Positions 2,903 through 14,606 of a DNA stretch of 64,000 nt are shown here, piece after piece (within the stretch, counting starts at the first letter, position 1; the number at the start of each line of letters is the position of its first letter). Source of the stretch: Paracoccus cavernae (GTDB lineage: Bacteria; Pseudomonadota; Alphaproteobacteria; Rhodobacterales; Rhodobacteraceae); the NCBI GenBank assembly GCA_030410095.1, contig JAUFRC010000001.1, positions 2,782,501-2,846,500 of the forward strand, given 5' to 3'. The notes beneath the pieces are model-generated. The model was given only the letters and a program-made list of their open reading frames with translations, ran no database searches and was not told where the DNA came from. A program made the position numbers and the translations under genes.

Positions 2903-2971
2903 TGGAAAGAAGCAAATAATTCTCTCAAAACGATAACAATATACCGCGATCAAAACACCGAACGCGCATGG

Positions 2972-3047
<76 letters not shown>

Positions 3048-3390: not shown

Positions 3391-3398
3391 GGCCCATT
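3391..3398. repeat. Target-site duplication, left copy
   Basis: GGCCCATT lies immediately outside the left inverted repeat. The identical octamer lies immediately outside the right inverted repeat at 14599-14606. Eight bases is the duplication length characteristic of IS66-family transposition. Confidence 0.95.
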
Positions 3399-3419
3399 GT
3401 AAGCGGTGCATATGACCCC
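3399..3419 (+). repeat. Left terminal inverted repeat of the IS66-type transposon
   Basis: The repeat starts GTAAGCGGTGCATATGACCC and runs one more C. IS66-family ends characteristically begin GTAAGCG. It is a perfect 21-base inverted match to 14578-14598. Confidence 0.95.
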
Positions 3420-3487
3420 TCAAAGGGTCCTATCTCGGACTTCCGGCACGATGATATCCTTCCTGTAACTTGAGGCAGGAGGTCAAC

Positions 3488-3879
3488 ATGGATGTGCGCG
3501 AGGTCTGGGGCTACCAGATCGGATCATCCCCAGCGGGAAGAGCATTTGGCCGAACGCCCTCAAACGCGAGGCCGTCAAGCGACTGCGCGATGGTGCACGG
3601 CCTGGCGATGTCGCGGCCGAGATCGGCGCACATGAATGCCTTGTACGCAAATGGTACGTCGCAGATCGTCGTGCGCGCGGAGAGGTTGTGCCCGCGCGAC
3701 CTCCGGCTTTCGCCGAGGTCCTGATTGAAACATCCGCCGAACGCGCCTCTCCTGTCGACGGGGATATCAACCAATGCTCGGCGAAGCTCCATATTGGATC
3801 GCTGATCGTCGAATTCCCGATCTCGATTGCGGAGAAGGATCTGCACAAGATCATTCGCGTCGCGACAGGTGCGTCATGA
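3488..3879 (+). CDS. tnpA: IS66 family accessory protein TnpA
   Basis: This is a small HTH protein of about 130 residues. The region RDGARPGDVAAEIGAHECLV, then RKWY, is the helix-turn-helix expected of IS66 TnpA. It begins at ATG 3488 after an AGGAGG-like site. A one-base shift is needed near 3515 to enter the main frame (IIPSGKSIWPNALKREAV). The stop overlaps the tnpB start, as in other IS66 elements, where TnpA is required with TnpB and TnpC for transposition. I am sure of the family, less so of the exact start. Confidence 0.85.
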
Positions 3880-4226
3880 TCACGCCCTCCAACACCTACA
3901 AGATCTACCTGGCCACCGAACCTGTCGACTTCCGCAAAGGGATGGATGGCCTCGCCAGTTTGGTATCCAGAAATTTCGATCTGGATCCATTTTCGGGCGC
4001 CTTCTTCATCTTTCGTTCGAAAGGGAGAGAGCGGATGAAAATACTCCTGTGGGACGGTACCGGCCTGATCCTTGTCTACAAAAGGATCGAGGGCAAAGGC
4101 TTCATCTGGCCCAAGATCGCAGACGGGATATTACAATTGACCAAGGCCCAGTTCGAAGCCCTGTTCGAGGGCATCGATTGGCGGCAGGTCATCAAGCCCC
4201 GATATCGCCAGATCCGATTGGCCTGA
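3876..4226 (+). CDS. tnpB: IS66 family accessory protein TnpB
   Basis: The product is 116 residues, the standard length for IS66 Orf2. It has the family core: YLATEPVDFRKGMDGLASLV near residues 10-29, then FIFRSKGRERMKILLWDGTG and LVYKRIEGKGFIWP. It overlaps the tnpA stop by four bases (translational coupling). It is intact. In a minimal IS66, tnpC would follow directly. Here the next gene is the AAA+ ATPase, and tnpC lies 7.1 kb further right. Confidence 0.93.
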   Translation: MITPSNTYKIYLATEPVDFRKGMDGLASLVSRNFDLDPFSGAFFIFRSKGRERMKILLWDGTGLILVYKRIEGKGFIWPKIADGILQLTKAQFEALFEGIDWRQVIKPRYRQIRLA

Positions 4227-4379
4227 ACTGAACTCAGCCACGCAGTCGGCGGGACCGTAGCGAGGTCCACGACCAGAGCAACGCCGTGGCGATCATAGAT
4301 CCCAAGCAAAAAGCGTGCTGTACGGCGCCGATGTCGCTCGCGCCGACGGCAGCAGCTTGTCTAAGAAAAGCTCAATCAC

Positions 4380-5474
4380 ATGCCTCTCATCCCTTTTGCC
4401 GAGATCAGATTCTTTGACCCGGCTGATGCCCGCGCAAATCTTGAAACCAGGTTCGAAGGTCATCTCTGTCGTCTTCGCGGCTTCTCTGACCACAGCGACG
4501 ACGATTGCTACGAGATCGCAGCCAAGGTGCCTGCACAGATCGGGCATAGGCATAGTCTTGGGCGCGATGACCTGCAGAAGATCCAGCGTCGAATTTCTCG
4601 TCTCCTGGCTCGCCGCGACGCGGCGAGTGGCATGAGCCATCTCAAACGTGAAGACCGCGAGAGGCTTGAGGTTCTCAGGAGCGGTGTTCAGTTGGTGGCC
4701 GTACCAAGTGAGCATCGTGCCGATGGGATTGCAGCGCAACTTCATGCTGAAGCCCCTTGGATGGCGCCGGCGACCGAGATCGTCTGGCACGCCATGCGAC
4801 GCTCCGTGCGCGAAGGCGCACACGGTTTGCGCCTACCGCCCTTACTTCTCGACGGCCCACCTGGCATTGGCAAAAGTCACTGGTCTCGTCGCTTGGGCGC
4901 ATTCCTTATGCTTCCGACGACCGTTGTCGAGGCAACCAGCGAAAGTGCATCCTTCGGGCTGACCGGCTCTCAGCGCGGGTGGGGCAACGCGCAACCAGGT
5001 CGATTGATTGAGACAATCCTTCGCAATCTGGTCGCCAATCCGCTTGTAGTGATCGACGAACTGGAAAAGGCTGGAACGGTCACGTCGAGCAAGGGACACA
5101 GCTACGGCTTGGCAGATTCCTTGCTGCCGCTCTTGGAAACGCTGACCTCCCGCCGTTGGAAGTGCCCGTACTATGACATCCGGTTCGACGTCAGCTGCGT
5201 CAACTATGTGTTGACCTGCAATGACTATCGGCGACTTCCGGAACCTCTGCTGAGCCGCTGCCCACCGATCCGTCTACGCAATCTGAACAAGGACGAAATT
5301 GAAGGCTTTGTCCGGCGCGAAGGCGAAAAGCGATGCCTCTCGGACCTGGCGATCGAAACGATCCTAGAAGCAATACAACACCCATCCTGCCGAACCAGCC
5401 AACCGAGTCTGCGCCTTGCCTCGCGGATGCTGCAGCGCGCGAGCGAACTCGAGAACGCGCCACCCTTGCATTGA
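4380..5474 (+). CDS. AAA+ ATPase, Lon-like ATPase domain without protease domain
   Basis: The product is 364 residues. The N-terminal 115 residues are charged and unassigned. The AAA+ core follows: Walker A GPPGIGKSHW near residue 160, Walker B PLVVIDELEKAG near 226, a sensor-1 segment NYVLTCNDY and an arginine-finger-type RLPEPLLSRCPP. The sequence style is that of the Lon ATPase module, but the protein stops without the Ser-Lys protease domain. It lies inside the transposon right after tnpB, 74 bp before a small gene on the same strand with which it probably forms an operon. Its role is unknown. A transposition or target-choice helper, as AAA+ proteins are in IS21 and Tn7, is possible but speculative. 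The start lacks a clear ribosome site and could be internal. Confidence 0.7.
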   Translation: MPLIPFAEIRFFDPADARANLETRFEGHLCRLRGFSDHSDDDCYEIAAKVPAQIGHRHSLGRDDLQKIQRRISRLLARRDAASGMSHLKREDRERLEVLRSGVQLVAVPSEHRADGIAAQLHAEAPWMAPATEIVWHAMRRSVREGAHGLRLPPLLLDGPPGIGKSHWSRRLGAFLMLPTTVVEATSESASFGLTGSQRGWGNAQPGRLIETILRNLVANPLVVIDELEKAGTVTSSKGHSYGLADSLLPLLETLTSRRWKCPYYDIRFDVSCVNYVLTCNDYRRLPEPLLSRCPPIRLRNLNKDEIEGFVRREGEKRCLSDLAIETILEAIQHPSCRTSQPSLRLASRMLQRASELENAPPLH

Positions 5475-5548
5475 TACGGCCTCGCCAGCGCCAGCGAAAA
5501 CCCACTTCGAGCGGCGCTGGCGCCCATCCCACGCTCAGGAGATCAACG

Positions 5549-6004
5549 ATGATTCCTCATCACCGCAAAGAATTGAATCGTGCCATTAGCGCTATTCACG
5601 CCGCAGAGGTAGGGCCGACTGAAATCGATTTGGCAGACGCTCCGTTGCTGGCCTTTTGGCAAGTCTTGCTGGACTCTCGCGGTATGTCGATGCTGTTTGG
5701 CGAGGTGACAGATCATCCCAAACTTGGCAAAACAACGATGACGAGTTCCCGACTGATCGCCATTGACCGCGAGGCTGGCTGGGCGCGAACCATCAGTCGC
5801 TGGTATCGACTGGGGCGGCCATTCAACGACCTTGAAGCAGAGCTCATCCAGGCATGTCACAAAGCCGGACACGACGTGGTCTCCGCCCTGTTCGATTTTT
5901 CGCCTCACACGCCACTTGATGCAGACCACCTGGACCGGTTGCTCGCGGACTATGTAGCCCTTGTTCGGAAAATTTCGTTGGAATATCCGGAGGCCAAGGC
6001 TTAA
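5549..6004 (+). CDS. Small uncharacterised protein paired with the AAA+ ATPase
   Basis: The product is 151 residues, starting at ATG 5549 behind a strong AGGAG. I see no signal peptide, membrane segment or metal motif. It is mostly helical, with the segments FWQVLLDSRGMSMLFGEVTD and ISRWYRLGRPFNDLEAELIQ. It resembles small DUF-type proteins (DUF6634-like by memory) found beside AAA+ ATPases in Rhodobacterales accessory regions, but I cannot confirm the family. Being co-directional and next to the ATPase suggests a functional pair. It converges on the nuclease/ATPase operon across 170 bp of noncoding DNA. Confidence 0.6.
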   Translation: MIPHHRKELNRAISAIHAAEVGPTEIDLADAPLLAFWQVLLDSRGMSMLFGEVTDHPKLGKTTMTSSRLIAIDREAGWARTISRWYRLGRPFNDLEAELIQACHKAGHDVVSALFDFSPHTPLDADHLDRLLADYVALVRKISLEYPEAKA

Positions 6005-6173
6005 CGGCTCAACCGTTGATCACAGGCGCCTGAGCACTGTCTAAATCGACCCGAAGGGCGGACAGCGGTCTATGAGATCGCGGCATCGCATACGCGGCAA
6101 TCGGCGATATCGGTCATTCACGACTCGTTCGGAGAGCGACACACTGCGCAGGTGTGAACAGAAAGCAGGAGCC

Positions 6174-7928
6174 TCAGCTGGCGTCCGCGGCCATATCCAT
6201 GAATGGCTGTAGCGTCGCATGCACGCTCTCGAACTCACCAGCACGCAAAACCTGCAGCTTGTCGGTGAATTCGATAATATCGGCGTCCTCGAATTTCTGG
6301 TCATGCAGTGACACGGTTCCGGAATCACCTGCGCGTCGTGCGGCACCGCCTTCACGACGAGGTCAATCATGGCGCCCACGTTTTTGCGTCCTGGTCCTGC
6401 TGGTTTGGGCTGTCGATGACGATTGGCCCGAAGAACGACGTCGAGAACTCGTTCATCGTATTTATGATCGCGAGGTAGTAAGCGAGGATCGACCGCGGCA
6501 GGTCACTACCGGTCTCCGAAATTCGGGCCGGCAGCTTGGTGAATTCCTGAATACTGTAGTTGGCAACATCGAGCCGATCGAGATAGGAGAGCATGAGCCG
6601 GGCGTAGAAGGCGACGATCTCATCGCGACGCTTCTTGTCCTTCAACGCGCTCAGCTTCTCTTCGATCTCTTTGATTTCATTCACGAGAATCGAAATCTCA
6701 TCCGTGAGATTGTCGAATTGTTCCCGGAAAAGATCAGACGCAATGCGTCGGCCCTTGCTCTCGATGACATCCGCCAAGGAGACATCGTCGCGCCGGGCGT
6801 TGAGCGCGGCTTGGATCTCGGCCATCGCCGCATCCGCATCTCGCACCTCCGCATCTACGGAAGCGGCCGATTTCGCAAGTTGCTGGATTTTCGTCGAAGA
6901 GTCAGAAATGAACTCGAGGCACGCCTCGCGATCCTCGATAATGCTGTATCGATTGGCAAAATCGTTCTGGTGGGACGTGCCACAGGTGGGACACAGGATC
7001 TCCTCAGGAAGATCACGAGCGAAGACGATGTCCTTTTCGATCTCCTGAAGTGCCGCGCGCACGGTGGCGATCTGATTATCGGTTATTACCCGCTGATCCA
7101 AAATTTCGGCGAGCTTTGCCGCGCGGGTCCGTCGATCTTCGCGAAGCTGTTTCAGCCGGACCAGCAACCGCTCGATTGCGACTTCGTGACCTTCAGTGCT
7201 GAGCTCCAGGCCATCGAAGGTCACCGTAAGCCTGACCTTCTCTATGGCCTTCTGAACAACGTTTCGATCCGCCTGGAACTCACGTTGCTTGATCTGGATC
7301 TGACGCTTGTTTGCCTCCAAGACGTAGAACTCGTTCGGCAGAATGCCGGTGTGGAACTCGATAACCGGCTTTTATAGGCGTTGTATTGCGCGAGATTTGC
7401 GAAGGATTCGAGTGGCTTGGTCCAGCCGTCATCCTGGTCAATGTAGAAGGGTAAAAAAGCATAGGCGGGTGGCGGAATTTCGGGCTCCCCGGCACGACTC
7501 GATAGAACCAGCTTAAAATCCAGCAGCTCCGCCATAAAGGGCGCGAGCTCCTTTACCACACTGTTGGCTCGAATGACGAGCTTGCCGTCATCCGTGAAGA
7601 ACGAAAAGCGGTTCCGCTCTCTGAGAACCCGATAGCGGACATCATCCACGGTGAATGTGAGGAGCGACTTGATGTTCGCTTCCACCCAGTTGGGATGAAC
7701 CTTCGCCGCCTCGGCTCCCAGAGTCCAATAGATGCTCTTGATAACCGACGATTTACCGACGTCATTTTCGCCGATGATCACCGTCATCTTCGGATGAAAT
7801 GAGATCCGGCGTGCCTTCCGTTCTTTGAGAGACAACAACTCCAAGCTTTCGAAGCGCAATTTTTTCATCGTTCTTTTTCGCAGATTTCTGATCAAGAGTT
7901 GAAAGAGCTGATCTTCGTTACGTCTCAT
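6174..7928 (-). CDS. SMC/Rad50-like ABC ATPase of a Lamassu / ABC-3C type defence pair
   Basis: The gene is read from ATG 7928, which overlaps the nuclease stop as ATGA. An alternative start is ATG 7868 (MKKLRFESLELLSLKERKAR). Walker A is GENDVGKSS. Helical arms follow, around a CPTCGTSHQNDF hook-like CxxC. Walker B is GPIVIDSPNQQDQDAKNVG, and the stop is at 6174-6176. The whole protein is about 565-585 residues. Three one-base shifts (about 7372 in an A run, 6376 and 6320) split it. Across them the reading KPVIEFHTGILPNEFYVLE and the C-terminal DADIIEFTDKLQVLRAGEF is continuous, so the gene is probably intact. The ATPase is expected to sense foreign or unusual DNA ends and license the nuclease. 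Assignment to LmuB versus another ABC-3C ATPase is an inference. Confidence 0.75.
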
Positions 7929-8983
7929 CGCTGCAACTCATACAAGATCGCCGCCTTGACCAGAAAATCGCTCGCGCCAGGGTGCCACTCCGCGACTAGG
8001 TTTTTCGCTTCTATAAACACGATATCTAAGAGATGCATTTTATCGTCGGCCTGATCGACACCGGCATACACTACATCATGAAGTTCCTGGGTAAACGCCA
8101 CCGTTGCGGCATTCGTGCGGGAACGCACGAGCATTTCGTATTCACGCCAAGAGGCTTGGATACCGACCTTCTCCTTGAAAGGCACGGTCAGATCATCCGA
8201 CGCAGTCTTCCAGTCTGGGCGATGTGAATGGTGATCTTGGGCCTGTGTCAACCACTTCATCATATTCGCTCGCGTGACGAACTTCGAAGCCTTCAACGCC
8301 TCGAAGTTCCCGAGATCTGCTAGCGCCTTGGAGCGCGTACGGCAGAAATCATTCAGAGCCAGCGCGAACGTCTTGGGCGGGATATCGGAGCCAAGTTCGG
8401 ACTCGAGGAATTCGGCGATGCGTCCAATCACCGTATTTTGGTAGTTCGTCAGATTTAGATCGGAGAAAACGAAGAAGAAGAGTACGTTATGAACACCATC
8501 ATCATAACCATCCACCTCTTCGGAAATCGCCTTAACGAACTTCTCGAGCTTCGCCTTCTCAGCCGAGGAAAACTTTTCCTCTCCATGGGCAACAATCACC
8601 TCCGGTAACGGCTGATTGCTGACGAATACCAATCGTTCAACGGTGGCGCCGAAACGAACACAGTTATCGAACATCTTTCCGGCGAACGAACTCTTCTTGA
8701 TGCCTTTGCTGGAGGGGCGATGCGTGATTTTTGCAAAGGACCAATTACCAGTTTCTCTGGTCTTCACTTGATAAAAGATCGCGGATGACGGCTCATCCGC
8801 ATCGTCAAGCGCGACGATGTCATCATGAAATTCGAAGGCGACAGCGTAATTCGATCCCTTCTCGTGCAAATCCAACAGCCTAGAAACGCCCCAAGCTGTC
8901 TGATAGTCAAACCGATCCAATGCAGTTTGGCCACCCTTCTCACGCTCGGGGACACACGTTAGAAATTCTTTGACACCCACCAT
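7925..8983 (-). CDS. DUF4297/Cap4-type dsDNA nuclease effector (LmuA-like)
   Basis: The product is 352 residues and intact. The N-terminal half is a PD-(D/E)xK-like fold: GGQTALDRFDYQTAWGVSRL near residues 17-36, the acidic strand FEFHDDIVALDDAD (50-63) and the QxK strand IFYQVKTR (69-76). This is the signature of the DUF4297 nuclease used as Cap4 in CBASS and as LmuA in Lamassu. The C-terminal 150 residues match nothing I know and may contact the ATPase. The gene is first in a two-gene operon coupled to the ATPase by an ATGA overlap. It is expected to degrade DNA and abort infection when activated. I see no separate middle component (LmuC) between the two. Confidence 0.75.
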   Translation of the reverse strand: MVGVKEFLTCVPEREKGGQTALDRFDYQTAWGVSRLLDLHEKGSNYAVAFEFHDDIVALDDADEPSSAIFYQVKTRETGNWSFAKITHRPSSKGIKKSSFAGKMFDNCVRFGATVERLVFVSNQPLPEVIVAHGEEKFSSAEKAKLEKFVKAISEEVDGYDDGVHNVLFFFVFSDLNLTNYQNTVIGRIAEFLESELGSDIPPKTFALALNDFCRTRSKALADLGNFEALKASKFVTRANMMKWLTQAQDHHSHRPDWKTASDDLTVPFKEKVGIQASWREYEMLVRSRTNAATVAFTQELHDVVYAGVDQADDKMHLLDIVFIEAKNLVAEWHPGASDFLVKAAILYELQR

Positions 8984-9845
8984 CAGCTCCCGTCTGCGGC
9001 GCTACTACATCATACCAGTCGCCGCCGCATTGGAGCGCAGACTTCATGAAACATTAAGCCCACTTCCAAATTCAACCTCAAGAGGAGCCGGCGGCTATTT
9101 GATGGGCGTGGCGTTTTCGACACTCCGGCGGACGGCACGCAGTTCGAGGGCCTAGTGCCAAGGTTTCAGGCAAGCAGCTGTATCGCGTTTGCCTCAAGCA
9201 CCACCAAGCCGATGTCGCAAAAGGGCTGCAACCGCATTTCGCAGCGGTGCGGTTGAATGGATGTTTCGCCGGGTTGCGCTGCGCTCAATGATGATAGAGA
9301 CGGCGATGGGCCGGCCATGCAGGCTTGTCCTACTGATTGTCCCAACCTCGCAGCCCTGTCGCTTGCCATGGCGCAGGGCATCACTCGACGCCCTCTGCCT
9401 TCAATCCCTGCCGCCGCTTAGGAATCATGATATCGATCTTTTCGGATCGGGCCCCATGACACGAGTCGGCAAGTTGAACGCCGGTTCTCGTCCTCGTGGG
9501 TGGCTCTTGATTAGAACAACCCTCCCGCTCCGATAGCGCCTCTCGTGCTCGCTTACCCAATGGCGCACTGGCCCGTTTCTGGTCGGCTGGGAGTTACGTA
9601 CGAACTCAAGGCGAGCTTGCCTCTCTTGCATGGCTGTCATCATGTCCGTCATTGCGCCGCAGCACCAGTCGAACGTCGGCTTTCGGGATGCGGCCACCCA
9701 GCGCGGGTCGAGCCCGACCGTCGGCTTAGGGCCGTCATTGACACTGCGATGGACACGCCTCGCCTGGTCTACTGCCAAGGCGATGATCGACGTACCGGAC
9801 ACGTAGCGACTTGCTTCCAGCCCTTGCTATAGGTTGAATGACCCT
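8984..9845. other. Transposon interior, no recognisable gene
   Basis: This is 860 bp upstream of the nuclease operon. It must hold that operon's promoter near 8990-9060. The longest frames (a 125-residue minus frame at 9425-9802 and a 95-residue plus frame at 9545-9832) show no family motif and no plausible ribosome site. I regard the stretch as decayed or noncoding. Confidence 0.45.
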
Positions 9846-10347
9846 ATGGTTGAGCCCGGGATAACGATACGACCTGCGCATCCGGCAGACATTTCCGCGA
9901 TTGGTGAGATCGTCTCGGATCGTGGCAGCACACGTTCTGCGATCTACTGCCACGAGACTTCTTGCAGTCAATCACGCCGGGCACCCAAGCATCTCGCCAT
10001 AAACGAACTTTCGCACGACGTGACGTGCATTACCTTGTAGCCTGCGAGGCCAAGTCTGGGAACCTGATTGGATTCGTGTCTTGGGGACGTGGCCGTTAAC
10101 CGAATTGTGCAACGCCATACGAACTCTACGCGCTGTACCTTCGGCCGGGGTTCGAGTGCCGAGGCGTTGGCCGACTTCTGTTCCAAAGGGTGATTTCCGG
10201 CGTTGCTTCTTTTGGTTGTTCTGGCCTCTACCTCACCGCGCTCGCGCTGAACGCCAACCTAGATTTTACGTCAAGCTTGGAGGGATCGAGGTCGTTGCCC
10301 CACCTATCCAACTCGGGGATGCGTTCATCTGGCGCTTCGCACGATAG
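9846..10347 (+). pseudogene. GNAT-family N-acetyltransferase, disrupted
   Basis: The gene is readable as one acetyltransferase only by changing frame. The start is VEPGITIRPAHPADISAIGE, then (after a shift near 9925) WQHTFCDLLPRDFLQ and VHYLVACEAKSGNLIGFVSW, then a TAA at 10096. Next comes motif A, YALYLRPGFECRGVGRLLFQ, and after another shift near 10260 the end RFYVKLGGIEVVAPP...WRFAR with TAG at 10345. Motif A carries the acetyl-CoA-binding R-G-x-G. Two shifts plus an in-frame stop make true decay more likely here than elsewhere in the window. The substrate is unknown. Confidence 0.65.
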
Positions 10348-10910
10348 TGACCGTTCGCGCGGCCCGGCATCGCTAACATCGCGGCCAGGATCTCAACTCG
10401 CCTGGACCAAGTGTCAACTTCGGAAAATACTGCTTCATAGCGAAAACTTCAGACGGCAGTCGGCCTAGGGCTGAATATACCCTAGCCCAGAACTACAGCC
10501 CGCGGTCAATTCCGACACCTTCCTCCGTACGGGATTCCCAGCGCCCAGGACCTTCAGGTCGGCCACGGCTGCAGTGATCGAAGCGAACCAGATTTCCTAT
10601 GGGTTTTCTCATAGCTCAAAATAGGGGCAGTGGATCGACGGACTCGCAGCATGATCCAACTCTGAGGATTCTGCCTTCAGAATGAGAAATTTAGCGTCAC
10701 CATCTGGAATCTCCTGCCCCTGAGGCCTGTCAAGCTTAACCATCCTCATATACCGGCGGCATGATAATGACCTTAGGCGGAAATTCGCCCAAATTGAAAT
10801 ATCGGCGTTTGTAGCCGTTTGCGAAAAATGCAAAGCCGAACACTCTCAAAATAAATCGCATATAAATTAACGCTCTGGGGTCTCGATTTTTCTAATAGAG
10901 AAATAGAGTT

Positions 10911-10944
10911 ATGCGAAAAATCTTACTTATTCACTTTTTCGCAT
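10911..10944. repeat. Perfect 10-bp inverted repeat, 14-nt spacer
   Basis: ATGCGAAAAA at 10911-10920 matches TTTTTCGCAT at 10935-10944 within AT-rich DNA. It could be a regulator operator or a bidirectional terminator-like hairpin. No gene abuts it. Confidence 0.6.
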
Positions 10945-11030
10945 AAAATAATTGATCAAATAAGGACCGCCCCAAAATCGCTCAAATTATTTCCTCTTGA
11001 TCTGGTGATTCGATTCGCGCAGAAAAAATG

Positions 11031-11059
11031 AACCCTGAATTTTTTGGCACTTCAGGGTT
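11031..11059. repeat. Hairpin, 9-bp stem
   Basis: AACCCTGAA (11031-11039) pairs with TTCAGGGTT (11051-11059). It is the first of three consecutive hairpins upstream of tnpC. Confidence 0.6.
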
Positions 11060-11098
11060 TCACGGCGGAGGACTGCTTCGCGATGAACTGTTTTCTCA

Positions 11099-11120
11099 CC
11101 AGAAAGGTCGCCCTTTCTGG
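11099..11120. repeat. Hairpin, 9-bp stem with 4-nt loop
   Basis: CCAGAAAGG, a TCGC loop, then CCTTTCTGG. It is the second of three consecutive hairpins upstream of tnpC. Confidence 0.65.
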
Positions 11121-11180
11121 GCCCCGCCTTATGAAGGGAGTGCGCAGATGATCTAGAGCTTATGATCTTGGAAAGGAAAA

Positions 11181-11212
11181 GGGCCCTTCGGATCTGTAAA
11201 TCCTCAGGGCCC
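11181..11212. repeat. Two-tier hairpin upstream of tnpC
   Basis: The outer stem GGGCCCT/AGGGCCC and inner stem GGAT/ATCC are separated by a symmetrical two-base internal loop (TC/TC) and capped by CTGTAA. It is the third hairpin in the series and lies 130 bp before the tnpC start. Confidence 0.65.
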
Positions 11213-11342
11213 GGAAATCGCTTAGACCACGATCGTCCCCTTTCATCCCACCCTGACATCATCAAGTCAAGCAAAACCGCGCTGAGCGAGCGAACGGCAT
11301 TCTTGCGTTCGTGTCGCGCCTCAGTAAAAGGGATGAGATTAC

Positions 11343-13021
11343 ATGGATATTATTCAAATGGCTTGCGAGCCACTCTTGCGGCATGATGACTTAGCTGTAT
11401 CATCAGCCGCGCTTGAGATCGCGGCAGCTGATTTGCGTCGCGACGCGGAGCATGAAAAGATTTGCGCGCAAAAAGACGCTGCCTACTCAGTGCTGAGCGC
11501 CAAATGTAAGGTGGCGACCGCAGAATGGAAGCGTTGCAAGGAGCAGCTTGCCACCCTAAAGCTCGTAATCTTCGCACAGAGCAGTGAGAAGACGGCGAAA
11601 TCGGGAACGGAAAATATCGGGGAGACGCTATCCGGAATTGTCCCCGATAACGATGAGTCCAAGGACGGGGTGGAAAACGGGATCGAGGCTGGTTCCGTCA
11701 CAACGGGGCAAGTCACTGATGCCCCCAACGAACATCATCGGGAAAGCGAGCCGTCAGACTGCCGGACAATATTCCCCGGGCGCTCGAGGTCCACGAACCG
11801 CCATCTACCAGCTGCGATTACTGCGGCTGTCAGGCAACTGTGATTGGTGTCCAAATCGTCGAGAAAGTAGGTTTCCGGCCAGCCAGGGTCGTGGTGACTG
11901 AGCAGCGATTTCCTAAGTACAAGTGTCCGGGCTGCAAGACAGTCTTTCAGGCAAAGGTACCTGATCAGGCCTTTGATTTTACCAAGTACGGTCCCGAACT
12001 GCGAGCGGGCATCGCAACGAGTAAGTTCGCCGACTTCCTTCCCTTGTTCCGTATCGAGCAGATCTTCGAACGATCAGGCGCCAAAATCCATCGTGGGACA
12101 CTGAGCCGGTTGATGACCAGCACAGTTGAAGCGCTTAAGCCAGTCTACGAGGCGCTTCTTGAGGATGTTCGCGCTTCCGGCAAGCTGCATATGGACGAAA
12201 CCATAATGCCGCAATTCGTGCCAGGGAATGGAAAAGTCCGGAATTGCTATGCTTGGGCATTGTGCAGAGATGATAGACGCTGGTTGGGCAACCTACCTGC
12301 TGCCGTGGTCTTCGACTTCGCTCAATCTCGGGCGGGCGAGCACGGTGAGCGGTTCCTTGGTGATTTCCGAGAAGTACTGCAGGTCGATGGCTTCCCCGGG
12401 TATAACCGGCTGACCAGCGAGGGTCGTCCAAACGGTCCCATCAAGCTCGCTTATTGCTGGTCTCACGTCCGACGGCGTTTCCATCAGCTTTGGCTATCGA
12501 CCAAATCCATGGCTGCAAAGCACCTCCTTGATCAGATCAATGCCATGTACGGGATCGAACAGCGGATAGCGGGAACGCCCGCCAGCCATCGGCTCAGTGT
12601 ACGCAAACGGGAGACCGCTCCTCTCGCCGCTGAACTCAAGAGCAGCTTGGAGCAGACGGCAGCATCTATCGCAACGAAGTCCATCCTCGGCGAGGCTATC
12701 AGCTATACGCTGAATCTATGGGACGGCCTGCTTGTGTTCCTGTCGGATGGCCGCGTCGAAATGGACAATAACCCGGTAGAAAATGCCATTCGGCCGATTG
12801 CGCTTTTGCGCAAGAACGCCCTTTTCGCTGGATCTGAGGTTGGCGGAAGGAACTGGGCGATCATGGCCAGTCTGGTCGGTACCTGCAAGCTTCACGGCGT
12901 CGAACCCTACACCTACTTCACATGGGTGTTTGAGCAGTTGGCAAAGAAGTTGCCCCGGTCCGAGTATCATAGGCTGATGCCGTGGAACTGCCCGAAAGGT
13001 CGGTACAAGGCCAAGGACTAA
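11343..13021 (+). CDS. tnpC: IS66 family DDE transposase TnpC
   Basis: The product is about 558 residues. An N-terminal helical region (IAAADLRRDAEHEKICAQKD) is followed by a CxxC-containing zinc-binding segment (SCDYCGCQATV, then YKCPGCKTVF). The DDE catalytic core follows: D in LHMDETIMPQF, D in VLQVDGFPGYN, and E in MDNNPVENAIRPIALLRKNA, the classic IS66 signature. One shift near 11745 joins the two frames (RLPDNIPRALEVHEPP just after). It is the catalytic partner of tnpA/tnpB at the left end, in the same orientation but 7.1 kb away. Another 1.56 kb, including the exporter gene, separates it from the right inverted repeat. Confidence 0.93.
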
Positions 13022-13182
13022 CGTCAGCCCGCGGAGCTAGCTCCAGCCGGCATCAGCTTGGCGGGAGCAAACTCAGCATTAATAAAAAGGGTGGCGGTCA
13101 GTTTGATCGCCATCCCAGACTGTGCTATGCGCTCTCGGGCAAGAGGGAGATCGACATGGGACCGAAGAAAGCACGCCGCTAA

Positions 13183-13214
13183 GCCGCCACAACCCTGACT
13201 TTGGTTGTTGCGGC
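13183..13214 (+). terminator. Hairpin between tnpC and the exporter gene
   Basis: GCCGCcACAACC pairs with GGTTGTTGCGGC, with one mismatch and an 8-nt loop. It lies 160 bp after the tnpC stop and 66 bp before the exporter start. There is no T run, so its terminator function is uncertain. It could instead be an attenuator of the exporter gene. Confidence 0.5.
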
Positions 13215-13279
13215 CGTCACATGGTCAGCGCGCTTGCGTCCCTGAACGGCCGTCGGATTCATTCCTACGGAAGCTACCC

Positions 13280-14494
13280 ATGCAAACCCAACCTTTACGG
13301 CTGTGGAATTACAGCCTGACAGTCGCGCTCGCGCTGCTGATCCCATTTAATTTGATCGCCTCGCTCGGGATGGATATCTATCTGCCCATTGTTCCCGCAA
13401 TGCCGTCTATCCTCGGCACCAGCCCCTCTATCATTCAGCTGACCCTGACGCTTTACATGATCATGCTGGGCGTCGGTCAGGTGGTCTTCGGCCCGATCTC
13501 TGACGGGATCGGCCGGCGTCCCGTGCTGGCGTTCGGGGCCATCCTGTTCGTTCTGTCCAGCTTCGGTCTTGGCGCGGTTTCGACGGCCGCGCCGTTCGTT
13601 GCCCTTCGTGGCGCCCAGGCACTTGGCGCGTCTGCCATGCTTGTCGCGATCTTCGCGACCATTCGCGATGTCTATGCCGATAGACCCGAAAGCGGCACGA
13701 TTTACAGCCTCATGAACGCTATGCTGTCCTTTGTTCCAGCGCTTGGTCCGATCATCGGCGCAATCGTGGCCGAAGCCTTTGGCTGGCGCTGGATCTTCTA
13801 CCTGCTGGGAATCGCCGCGCTCATCCTGACCGCTGCCATTCTGCCGAAATGGAGAGAAACTCGCGTCAGAAGGGCTGAGCCAACCAACCTCACCGCGCGG
13901 GACATCCTGAGCAGCCGCGCCTTCTGGGCCTATACGTTCGCCTTTGGCACGGCGATGGGTGCGTTCTTTGTCTTCTTCTCGACCGCCCCACGCCTGCTCA
14001 TTGAGCGCGCCGGATATGGTGAGTTTGGCTTCAGCGTGGCCTTTGCAACCGTTGCCGTAGTCATGATCGCGGTTTCGCGCTTCGCAGCTATCTTCGTCGA
14101 TAGATGGGGAGTACGCGGTTGCGCCTGCCGCGGTTTGCTCCTGATGTTGGCTGGAGCGCTTCTGCTCTTGCTTGGACACCTGATCCTCGCCCCGTCACTG
14201 CTCTCCTTCATCATGCCGATGTGGCTCGTTGCAGTTGGGATCGTGATGATCGGCTCGGTCACAGCCAACGGTGCGCTCGCGGAATTTGGCGAGATCGCCG
14301 GGATGGCCGTCGCGCTGCATTTCTGCGTGCAAAGCTTGATCGTGGGGGTCGTGGGGACGGCTTTTGTCGTCATGCTCGGAGGCGATACCGCACTGCCCTT
14401 GATCACCTACACTACGATCATGGCGAGCGTTTCGTTTGCTTGGGTTAGAGCAGCAGGAAGCGACACACGTCAGTGCATTGAAAAATATCAATAA
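13280..14494 (+). CDS. FloR/CmlA-like MFS drug exporter (putative phenicol efflux)
   Basis: The product is 404 residues, the same length as FloR, from ATG 13280. A longer frame to 13205 adds 25 non-hydrophobic residues and is not preferred. Twelve membrane helices are predicted by eye. Blocks that match the florfenicol/chloramphenicol exporters FloR and CmlA as I remember them include ASLGMDIYLPIVPAMPSIL, IQLTLTLYMIMLGVGQVVFG, GRRPVL, SAMLVAIFAT-RDVYADRPE, FVFFSTAPRLLIERAGY, ALAEFGEIAGMAVA and HFCVQSLIVGVVGT. The family uses the proton gradient to expel phenicols. The gene is the last cargo before the right inverted repeat and is followed by a strong hairpin. Whether it confers resistance cannot be told from sequence. 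Confidence 0.85.
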   Translation: MQTQPLRLWNYSLTVALALLIPFNLIASLGMDIYLPIVPAMPSILGTSPSIIQLTLTLYMIMLGVGQVVFGPISDGIGRRPVLAFGAILFVLSSFGLGAVSTAAPFVALRGAQALGASAMLVAIFATIRDVYADRPESGTIYSLMNAMLSFVPALGPIIGAIVAEAFGWRWIFYLLGIAALILTAAILPKWRETRVRRAEPTNLTARDILSSRAFWAYTFAFGTAMGAFFVFFSTAPRLLIERAGYGEFGFSVAFATVAVVMIAVSRFAAIFVDRWGVRGCACRGLLLMLAGALLLLLGHLILAPSLLSFIMPMWLVAVGIVMIGSVTANGALAEFGEIAGMAVALHFCVQSLIVGVVGTAFVVMLGGDTALPLITYTTIMASVSFAWVRAAGSDTRQCIEKYQ

Positions 14495-14517
14495 ACTGCC
14501 AAATTACACGTCGGAAG

Positions 14518-14543
14518 GTAAACTGGCGCTTGCGCCAGTTTAC
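14518..14543 (+). terminator. Perfect 12-bp hairpin after the exporter gene
   Basis: GTAAACTGGCGC and GCGCCAGTTTAC flank two bases. It lies 23 bp after the exporter stop and 34 bp before the right inverted repeat. It is probably a transcript end or protects the transposon edge from read-out. There is no long T run. Confidence 0.65.
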
Positions 14544-14577
14544 TCGACCTAGATCAATGCGAACAGGAATAAGGCCG

Positions 14578-14598
14578 GGGGTCATATGCACCGCTTAC
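14578..14598 (-). repeat. Right terminal inverted repeat of the IS66-type transposon
   Basis: Read on the minus strand this begins GTAAGCGGTGCATATGACCC. It matches the left end over all 21 bases. Confidence 0.95.
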
Positions 14599-14606
14599 GG
14601 CCCATT
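14599..14606. repeat. Target-site duplication, right copy
   Basis: GGCCCATT, identical to 3391-3398, directly abuts the right inverted repeat. Confidence 0.95.

What the first reader, a model, noticed from the sequence alone, without database searches (positions are those of the whole stretch)
4380..6004. Lon-like AAA+ ATPase and small partner directly behind tnpAB
AAA+ proteins act as target-choice or activation factors in IS21 (IstB), Tn7 (TnsC), Tn5053 (TniB) and Mu (MuB). An AAA+ gene placed where tnpC should be could be an accessory transposition factor, or a separate defence or stress pair. It has the Lon ATPase module but no protease domain.
Basis: inference. Interest (0 to 1): 0.55.

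Follow-up and report, generated by a model that had tools for sequence, protein, structure and literature searches.

The report
Defence-carrying IS66 transposon with AAA+ module
The AAA+ gene sits inside a complete 11-kilobase jumping element that carries an anti-phage defence system; close relatives of the gene ride in two unrelated kinds of jumping elements, but it is probably not needed for jumping.

Summary
In detail: 4380-5474 encodes a Lon-type AAA+ ATPase without protease domain, and 5549-6004 a DUF6634 protein, behind IS66 tnpB. The reading needs correcting. tnpC is not replaced. It lies 7 kb downstream, and the whole is one 11.2-kb IS66-family cargo transposon (3399-14598): 24-bp inverted ends matching at 21 of 24 bases, exact 8-bp duplication GGCCCATT, and cargo including a Lamassu defence system. 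The order tnpA-tnpB-AAA-cargo-tnpC recurs in other genera with different cargo.

The link to tnpB far exceeds chance (8 of 63 AAA places, 0.008 expected), but most AAA copies lie elsewhere, notably near TniABQ (Tn7/Tn5053-like) genes and behind nrdJ. A sub-branch of the same tnpAB clade has no AAA, yet two of its members sit between exact duplications, so AAA looks dispensable for transposition. A metallophosphoesterase-like gene can take its slot; DUF6634 is optional.

I read it as an exchangeable accessory module of defence-carrying transposons. Whether it serves the element or is defence cargo is open. IS66 elements with passenger genes are known (tIS66); I found no description of the split operon or of an AAA+ gene shared between two transposon classes in the papers I could search.

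The parts
3391..3398 (.). left target-site duplication GGCCCATT
   Evidence: identical to 14599-14606
3399..3422 (+). left terminal inverted repeat of the IS66-family transposon (GTAAGCGGTGCATATGACCCC...)
   Evidence: 21 of 24 bases match the right end
3488..3879 (+). tnpA (IS66 Orf1), read in two frames; limits approximate
   Evidence: HMM match 3523-3870, coverage 0.90 (E 2e-44); frames
3876..4226 (+). tnpB (IS66 Orf2), intact
   Evidence: PF05717 1.2e-36, NF033819 4e-33
4380..5474 (+). Lon-type AAA+ ATPase without protease domain, 364 aa
5549..6004 (+). DUF6634 small protein, 151 aa
   Evidence: PF20339 1.3e-36
6367..7928 (-). Lamassu lmuB (SMC-like ATPase), read in two frames (7242-7928 and 6367-7320)
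   Evidence: PADLOC LmuB 1.9e-76 and 2.4e-90
7925..8983 (-). Lamassu lmuA (Cap4-type nuclease)
   Evidence: PADLOC LmuA 5.1e-64; PF14130 6.9e-32
11343..13021 (+). tnpC (IS66 DDE transposase), read in two frames (11343-11843 and 11840-13021)
   Evidence: PF03050 3.4e-85, NF033517 7.8e-108 for the second frame; the first frame alone gave no Pfam or NCBIfam hit
13205..14494 (+). MFS transporter, second cargo gene, between tnpC and the right end
   Evidence: PF07690 6.6e-41
14575..14598 (-). right terminal inverted repeat
14599..14606 (.). right target-site duplication GGCCCATT

Best explanation
Shown: the gene belongs to a complete IS66-family cargo transposon (3399-14598) of a lineage found mainly in one family (Rhodobacteraceae-like) in which tnpAB is at the left end, tnpC towards the right end, and other genes, mostly anti-phage defence genes where scanned, lie between or behind. 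The AAA+ gene fills the slot directly behind tnpB. The same AAA family occurs near TniABQ (Tn7/Tn5053-like) genes, in one delimited element as the first gene inside the left end. Shown for relatives: it is under purifying selection, is absent from a sub-branch two of whose members sit between exact duplications, and a protein homologous to a metallophosphoesterase that elsewhere follows AAA-DUF6634 can take the slot. Inferred: AAA, DUF6634 and the metallophosphoesterases are one exchangeable accessory module that travels with defence-carrying transposons and is not part of the core transposition reaction. The AAA+ ring, of the Lon type without its protease, would be an ATP-driven remodeller of a protein or nucleoprotein substrate, with DUF6634 as an adaptor and the metallophosphoesterase as a nuclease-like effector where present. 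Its most likely use is conflict between mobile elements or with phages.
For: Ends: of 9 AAA-IS66 loci, 6 show exact 8-bp duplications, 1 shows 7 of 8, 2 have no right end found. tnpC follows on the same strand 7-12 kb downstream in 6 of 9, but directly behind tnpB in 31 of 35 other IS66 loci. AAA next to tnpB: 8 of 63 against 0.008 expected; TniQ within 40 kb: 14 of 63 against 1.6. Cargo differs while AAA stays: Lamassu, Type I R-M plus Gabija and pAgo plus SIR2, Type ISP R-M, type I secretion. Dispensable: G038a and G193 have tnpA-tnpB-tnpC without AAA and exact duplications; their tnpAB nest inside the AAA clade (97/96). Slot exchange: G307, exact duplication, has behind tnpB a protein 54% identical over 182 aa to the metallophosphoesterase behind AAA-DUF6634 in Ketogulonicigenium. 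AAA dN/dS 0.11-0.15 over three copies.
Against: In the 8 adjacent cases the gap to tnpB is 62-190 bp (chosen as same strand within 500 bp, but one search shows no opposite-strand tnpB nearer than about 4 kb). The AAA tree needs 5 changes of the IS66 label, at least 3 forced: repeated placement in one slot favours a role tied to the element. PADLOC gives no convincing hit for the AAA (0.004) and none for DUF6634. The two slot-taking proteins of G307 and G231 gave no Pfam hit at 1e-4. The AAA-less state could also be primitive in part: the tree needs 3 label changes, 2 forced. No function was tested; both structure predictions failed (pLDDT 47.6 and 41.7).
Confidence: 0.48

Rival explanations
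1. A transposition-service factor: the AAA+ ring acts on the element's own nucleoprotein complexes (for example disassembling the strand-transfer complex as host ClpX does for Mu, recalled) or sets transposition immunity or rate. It helps but is not essential, and is shared by IS66 and TniABQ transposons.
For: Gap of 62-190 bp to tnpB in the 8 adjacent cases. Repeated arrival in the same slot. In the Thioclava element (exact 5-bp duplication GCACT) AAA starts about 300 bp inside the left end; in 7 of 14 AAA-TniQ pairs TniQ is downstream on the same strand. Stays while cargo changes. The 3.8-kb deletion derivative G293a keeps both ends, tnpAB and AAA but only a tnpC remnant. Precedent: TnsF is shared by Tn6022 and the unrelated Tsy (PMC10293859, passages read).
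Against: A sub-branch without AAA has two members between exact duplications. On the TniB tree the AAA label is not clustered (7 changes, shuffled mean 8.0, 176 of 500 shuffles as low; contig breaks confuse the labels). In 5 of 14 AAA-TniQ pairs the strands differ. The seven IS66-type duplications differ from one another and none of these loci is an nrdJ locus, so a common target selector is unlikely.
Confidence: 0.32
2. A host-type stress or housekeeping gene captured by chance and spread only because the elements spread.
For: 19 loci have an nrdJ homologue upstream on the same strand (two checked as NrdJ); in the 8 drawn out the gap is about 0.1-0.3 kb. Some of these, e.g. G088 and G238, show no match to my IS66 or Tni models within the stretch fetched.
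Against: By eye, 5 of the 8 nrdJ-side upstream stretches printed share a left-end-like stretch with the Thioclava transposon, and three nrdJ loci (G308, G123, G263) have TniABQ downstream on the same strand. Distribution is patchy: 44 of 394 genomes.
Confidence: 0.12
3. One reading: an obligate transposition factor that replaces tnpC.
For: tnpAB directly upstream and no tnpC adjacent.
Against: tnpC is present further downstream in 6 of 9 loci. Relatives without AAA sit between exact duplications.
Confidence: 0.03

Closest known systems
tIS66: IS66-family elements with passenger genes (e.g. ISPa75-fosZ, PMC12888890, passages read)
   Same: tnpA, tnpB and a DDE transposase; 24-bp ends beginning GTAAGCG or similar; target-site duplications; passenger genes
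   Different: ISPa75 is 3.0 kb with one passenger behind the DDE gene. Here AAA-bearing elements with tnpC are 11-17 kb, the operon is split between tnpB and tnpC, the cargo scanned is mostly defence systems, and an AAA+ gene fills the slot behind tnpB
Tn7/Tn5053-like TniABQ transposons
   Same: the same AAA family lies near TniABQ genes (14 of 63 places with TniQ within 40 kb); exact 5-bp duplication in the Thioclava element
   Different: unrelated transposase (TniA), TniB and TniQ; no match to these in the first 30 kb of the window
Lon protease ATPase module
   Same: closest sequence family of the AAA domain (best matches of the profile among solved structures are Lon chains, 6.6e-23)
   Different: no protease domain, own N-terminal region of about 130-150 aa, far below the NCBIfam cut-off
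Tn6022 / Tsy sharing of TnsF (PMC10293859, passages read)
   Same: an accessory gene shared by two unrelated transposon classes
   Different: TnsF is a shown target selector for comM; the AAA here looks dispensable and is of unknown function
Lamassu anti-phage system
   Same: lmuA and lmuB are cargo of the window element
   Different: lmuB is read in two frames in this assembly; the AAA gene matched no Lamassu model

Membership tests
IS66-family transposon | terminal inverted repeats beginning GTAAGCG | tested here: met
   21 of 24 bases match between 3399-3422 and 14575-14598
IS66-family transposon | 8-bp target-site duplication | tested here: met
   GGCCCATT on both sides, 8 of 8
IS66-family transposon | tnpA, tnpB and DDE tnpC | tested here: met
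   all present; tnpA and tnpC are each read in two frames
IS66-family transposon | contiguous tnpABC operon | tested here: not met
   tnpC is about 7 kb behind tnpB; in 31 of 35 other IS66 loci it is directly behind tnpB. A variable feature, not used to deny membership
Lon protease | AAA module followed by Ser-Lys protease domain | tested here: not met
   match ends with the ATPase module; 57.7 bits against cut-off 608
TnsC/TniB/IstB/MuB target-choice ATPases | matches the family models | tested here: not met
   at E up to 0.01 Pfam gives only AAA (8.9e-7) and AAA_5 (below cut-off) for the window protein
TnsC/TniB/IstB/MuB target-choice ATPases | needed for transposition | tested here: inconclusive
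   indirect evidence against: relatives without the gene sit between exact duplications; no assay
McrB | AAA_5-type GTPase with an McrC partner | tested here: not met
   AAA_5 0.006, 17 bits, below cut-off 22; no McrC model among the hits of the 8 and 9 proteins scanned
Lamassu (cargo) | lmuA and lmuB adjacent | tested here: met
Tn7/Tn5053-like element | TniA, TniB, TniQ in the element | tested here: not met
   no match to my Tni models in the first 30 kb of the window

The most novel reading that the evidence does not exclude
A protease-less Lon-type AAA+ machine, with DUF6634 and PdeM- or SbcD-like metallophosphoesterases, is a portable transposition-service module that unrelated transposases (IS66 TnpC and TniA) have each taken up: an element-borne counterpart of ClpX in Mu, which takes apart or processes the strand-transfer complex and so makes long, defence-carrying elements easier to move or to live with.
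Probability: 0.22. Interest if true: 0.8.

Novelty: new variant of a known kind. Interest (0 to 1): 0.52.

Why it matters
IS66 elements are usually treated as small insertion sequences, and TnpA and TnpB have no settled role (both recalled). A lineage of 11-17 kb IS66 transposons that split tnpAB from tnpC and carry Lamassu, Gabija, pAgo or R-M systems would add IS66 to the transposon types known to spread defence systems. An AAA+ gene shared with TniABQ elements gives a concrete handle on whether unrelated transposons trade accessory machines.

Tried and rejected
Rejected: AAA as a replacement of tnpC (tnpC found downstream). Rejected after a test of my own: AAA as an obligate core gene of the split lineage. 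I held this; the wider tnpB search and the loci behind it showed members without AAA, nested inside the AAA clade. Rejected: a common target selector (IS66-type duplications differ from one another and are not at nrdJ). Rejected: IS66 ends for the modules in L014, L015 and L018 (no GTAAGC within 3.2 kb upstream).

Led nowhere: structures of AAA and DUF6634 (pLDDT 47.6 and 41.7), so no fold search was run. Empty site for the window element: the matches listed for the right flank in relatives begin at base 307 or later, so the junction itself has no counterpart. The search for related loci gave 2 loci only. Tn ends by simple repeat search: clear for Thioclava only, of 6 elements tried. Whether AAA marks a TniB clade: not clustered, with contig breaks as a confounder (G316, scored 'no', would have its AAA about 17 kb away if its contig is circular). 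Paper searches found nothing; others listed nothing that I judged relevant from the listing; 91 and 95 led to the three papers read in passages.

Full report
What is there. The window starts in what reads as an rRNA operon, with tRNA-Met at 2970-3047 (the rRNA genes are my reading, no RNA family search was run). Behind it, 4380-5474 encodes a 364-aa AAA+ protein and 5549-6004 a DUF6634 protein. tnpB of IS66 lies at 3876-4226 and tnpA just before it, in two frames. The AAA module is closest to Lon: TIGR00763 7.8e-16, far under its cut-off; a profile of 11 homologues finds Lon chains first among solved structures, at 6.6e-23. The active-site residues are conserved and there is no protease domain.

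A complete transposon. A search for an inverted copy of the left end GTAAGCGGTGCATATGACCCC found 21 of 24 matching bases at 14575-14598, with the identical 8 bases GGCCCATT outside both ends. The 11,200-bp element holds tnpA, tnpB, AAA, DUF6634, a Lamassu system (LmuA 5.1e-64; LmuB 1.9e-76 and 2.4e-90 in two frames), about 2.3 kb to which I assigned no gene, tnpC at 11343-13021 and an MFS transporter.

The order recurs. A profile search found the AAA family in 44 of 394 genomes of the family at E up to 1e-40, 63 places, and in 3 of 385 genomes drawn from the class, one of them the window's own. I fetched 60 of the 63 places with flanks; with the window itself 61 were looked at, G252:C12 and G153:C51 were not. 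Plasmid records added Paracoccus, Ketogulonicigenium, Martelella, Thioclava and others. tnpA and tnpB directly upstream on the same strand were seen in the window, L016 (tnpB in two pieces), L021, L034 (the same locus as L013), L040, L042, L043, L045, L050 and L057, and a GTAAGCG end stands upstream of tnpA in all ten (GTAAGCG also occurs upstream of AAA, without IS66 genes, in L033, L056 and L070). L014 and L015 have tnpB with a DUF6634 gene in the place of tnpA; L018 has a tnpB fragment. For nine of the ten (not L016) I looked further for right ends, ranking by the inverted repeat alone: exact 8-bp duplications in 6 of 9 (window 11.2 kb, G263 16.6 kb, G321 14.3 kb, G225 14.3 kb, Martelella 15.4 kb, G293a 3.8 kb), 7 of 8 bases in G215 (16.8 kb), no right end in G247 and G293b. 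In Martelella two right-end candidates tie and only one has the duplication. tnpC lies on the same strand 7-12 kb downstream in window, G263 (two pieces), G215, G321, G225 and Martelella; G293a has a remnant; G247 and G293b have none within the stretch. G215 and G263 share 91-94% identity in two blocks (6.1 and 3.2 kb), the first starting exactly at the left end, and their duplications differ.

Cargo. Scanned with PADLOC or Pfam: window, Lamassu; G215, Type I R-M and Gabija (GajA 6e-260, GajB 2.2e-224) and G321, pAgo (1.3e-211) with SIR2 partner (3.9e-219); G225, a Type ISP restriction-modification protein, a metallophosphoesterase and an AAA_15 ATPase. So 4 of 4 scanned AAA elements with tnpC carry defence genes. 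The Martelella element is annotated with a type I secretion set. The cargo proteins of G263 were not scanned; part of its DNA is like that of G215. AAA stays while the cargo changes.

Chance and control. In the 44 genomes TnpB was listed at 78 places. Eight of 63 AAA places have one within 500 bp upstream on the same strand; 0.008 are expected. Of 35 other IS66 loci that I looked at (30 fetched already held, one of these on a plasmid), tnpC follows tnpB directly in 31; the exceptions are L134 (IS21-like genes behind tnpB, my reading of the ORFs), L141 (degenerate) and the partial copies L145 and L146. tnpAB of AAA loci form one clade with L134 and L141 (100/100), and six AAA-type TnpC are one side of a branch (100/99). 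These two trees were built before the AAA-less members below were found.

The result against a core role. A search of the 394 genomes with AAA-type TnpB gave 17 loci at 186 bits or more, then G273 at 168.8, then a step to 163.3 and below. Behind tnpB these 18 have: AAA in 8; a metallophosphoesterase-like gene in 2 (G307, exact duplication GAAGCTCC; G231, no right end); tnpC within about 0.5 kb and no AAA in 4 (G038a, exact duplication ATTTTAAC; G193, exact duplication AACAGTGT; G264; G038b, with a partial tnpC); IS21-like genes in 1 (G316, and no AAA or tnpC in the 18 kb fetched); contig end after 0.6 kb in 1 (G137); 2.7 kb to the contig end without any match to my models in 1 (G248); DUF6634 without AAA in 1 (G273, degenerate). 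In one search right ends were ranked by repeat plus duplication; in G038a another candidate has a better repeat (21 against 19 of 24) and no duplication. On a tnpAB tree G038, G193, G264 and G137 nest inside the AAA clade (97/96), while G307, G231 and G248 branch outside it; I read the first as loss of AAA. G193 carries a DRT-type reverse transcriptase (2.7e-209), G307 a SWIM_XIII match (1.8e-55) and an OLD/AriA-like ATPase; two G038a cargo proteins have no PADLOC hit. So this lineage can carry defence genes with or without AAA.

The second home of the gene. TniQ lies within 40 kb of AAA in 14 of 63 places against 1.6 expected: 7 downstream on the same strand, 2 upstream on the same strand, 5 on the other strand. 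In the Thioclava plasmid the element has ends TGTTTGACCCACT.../TGTTGGACCCATT... with exact 5-bp duplication GCACT; AAA starts about 300 bp inside and TniQ ends about 230 bp from the other end. In 19 loci an nrdJ homologue lies upstream of AAA on the same strand (two checked, TIGR02504 8.1e-178 and 8.9e-182); in the 8 drawn out the gap is about 0.1-0.3 kb. By eye 5 of 8 nrdJ loci printed share the Thioclava left-end stretch, and G308, G123 and G263 have TniABQ downstream. The AAA tree needs 5 changes each for the IS66 and nrdJ labels, with at least 3 and 4 forced by well supported branches: the gene has moved between contexts more than once. On a TniB tree the AAA label is not clustered.

The loose partners. 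DUF6634 occurs in 10 of the 44 AAA genomes and within 0.3 kb behind AAA at 4 of the 63 places (G000, G150, G310, G135:C1). Two kinds of metallophosphoesterase recur beside AAA. One (L015:10683-11501) is annotated as such, matches phrog_547 phosphoesterase 2.2e-41 and resembles PdeM weakly (1.5e-6, below cut-off). The G307 protein behind tnpB is 54% identical to it over 182 aa, though Pfam gave no hit for it at 1e-4. AAA is under purifying selection (dN/dS 0.11-0.15 in three pairs).

Reading. The structural facts (complete split IS66 transposon, defence cargo, AAA in the slot behind tnpB, company with TniABQ genes, AAA-less mobile relatives) I hold at about 0.95. What AAA does is inference. Loss without visible loss of mobility and company with defence genes point to an accessory passenger module for conflict; the fixed slot, reached repeatedly, points to a service to the element. 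I put the first somewhat higher.

Literature. Passages of PMC12888890 describe ISPa75, a 3.0-kb IS66 element with one passenger behind the DDE gene, and count 7 of 25 Pseudomonas IS66 members in ISfinder with passengers (tIS66). The words IS66 and nrdJ do not occur in the main texts of PMC10293859 and PMC8649781. Searches listed no description that I recognised, from titles and abstract starts, of split IS66 transposons with an AAA+ gene; the library holds open-licence papers only, and ISfinder was not searched.

Noticed in passing
window 6367-8983: Lamassu anti-phage system (lmuA, lmuB) as transposon cargo; lmuB read in two frames in this assembly.
   Followed up: yes
L036-L039, L041, L049, L052-L054, L056, L058, L060-L062, L070, L072, L081, L087, L088: The 3' side of nrdJ looks like an insertion hotspot: an nrdJ homologue upstream of AAA in 19 loci, several with a left-end-like stretch shared with the Thioclava transposon (by eye) and three with TniABQ downstream. 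The word nrdJ does not occur in the main texts of two Tn7-like surveys.
   Followed up: partly
L014:6970-7904, L015:6992-7905: A DUF6634 gene takes the place of tnpA and overlaps tnpB by 4 bases in Paracoccus yeei and Ketogulonicigenium plasmids.
   Followed up: partly
L009 about 5100-10900; L010: Behind what reads as another rRNA operon of the same genome (L009) lie a serine-recombinase-like ORF, DUF6634 fragments and an IS21-like pair (gene names are my reading). L010 has two DUF6634 fragments with the same or nearly the same scores but its ORFs were not listed.
   Followed up: no
L181:1698-4654 (G193): An AAA-less IS66 transposon of the same lineage carries a DRT-type reverse transcriptase gene beside a DUF4062 gene.
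   Followed up: partly
L048, L050, L051, L052 (G321): One genome holds four AAA copies: in an IS66 element, beside TniABQ, behind nrdJ, and one on a 5.3-kb contig.
   Followed up: partly
window 8983-11343: About 2.3 kb inside the transposon to which I assigned no gene; its ORFs were not scanned against a library.
   Followed up: no
AAA C-terminus, P0001 361-364: The AAA proteins end in a conserved P-x-L/V-H/Q tail in all 11 aligned proteins, perhaps a docking motif.
   Followed up: no
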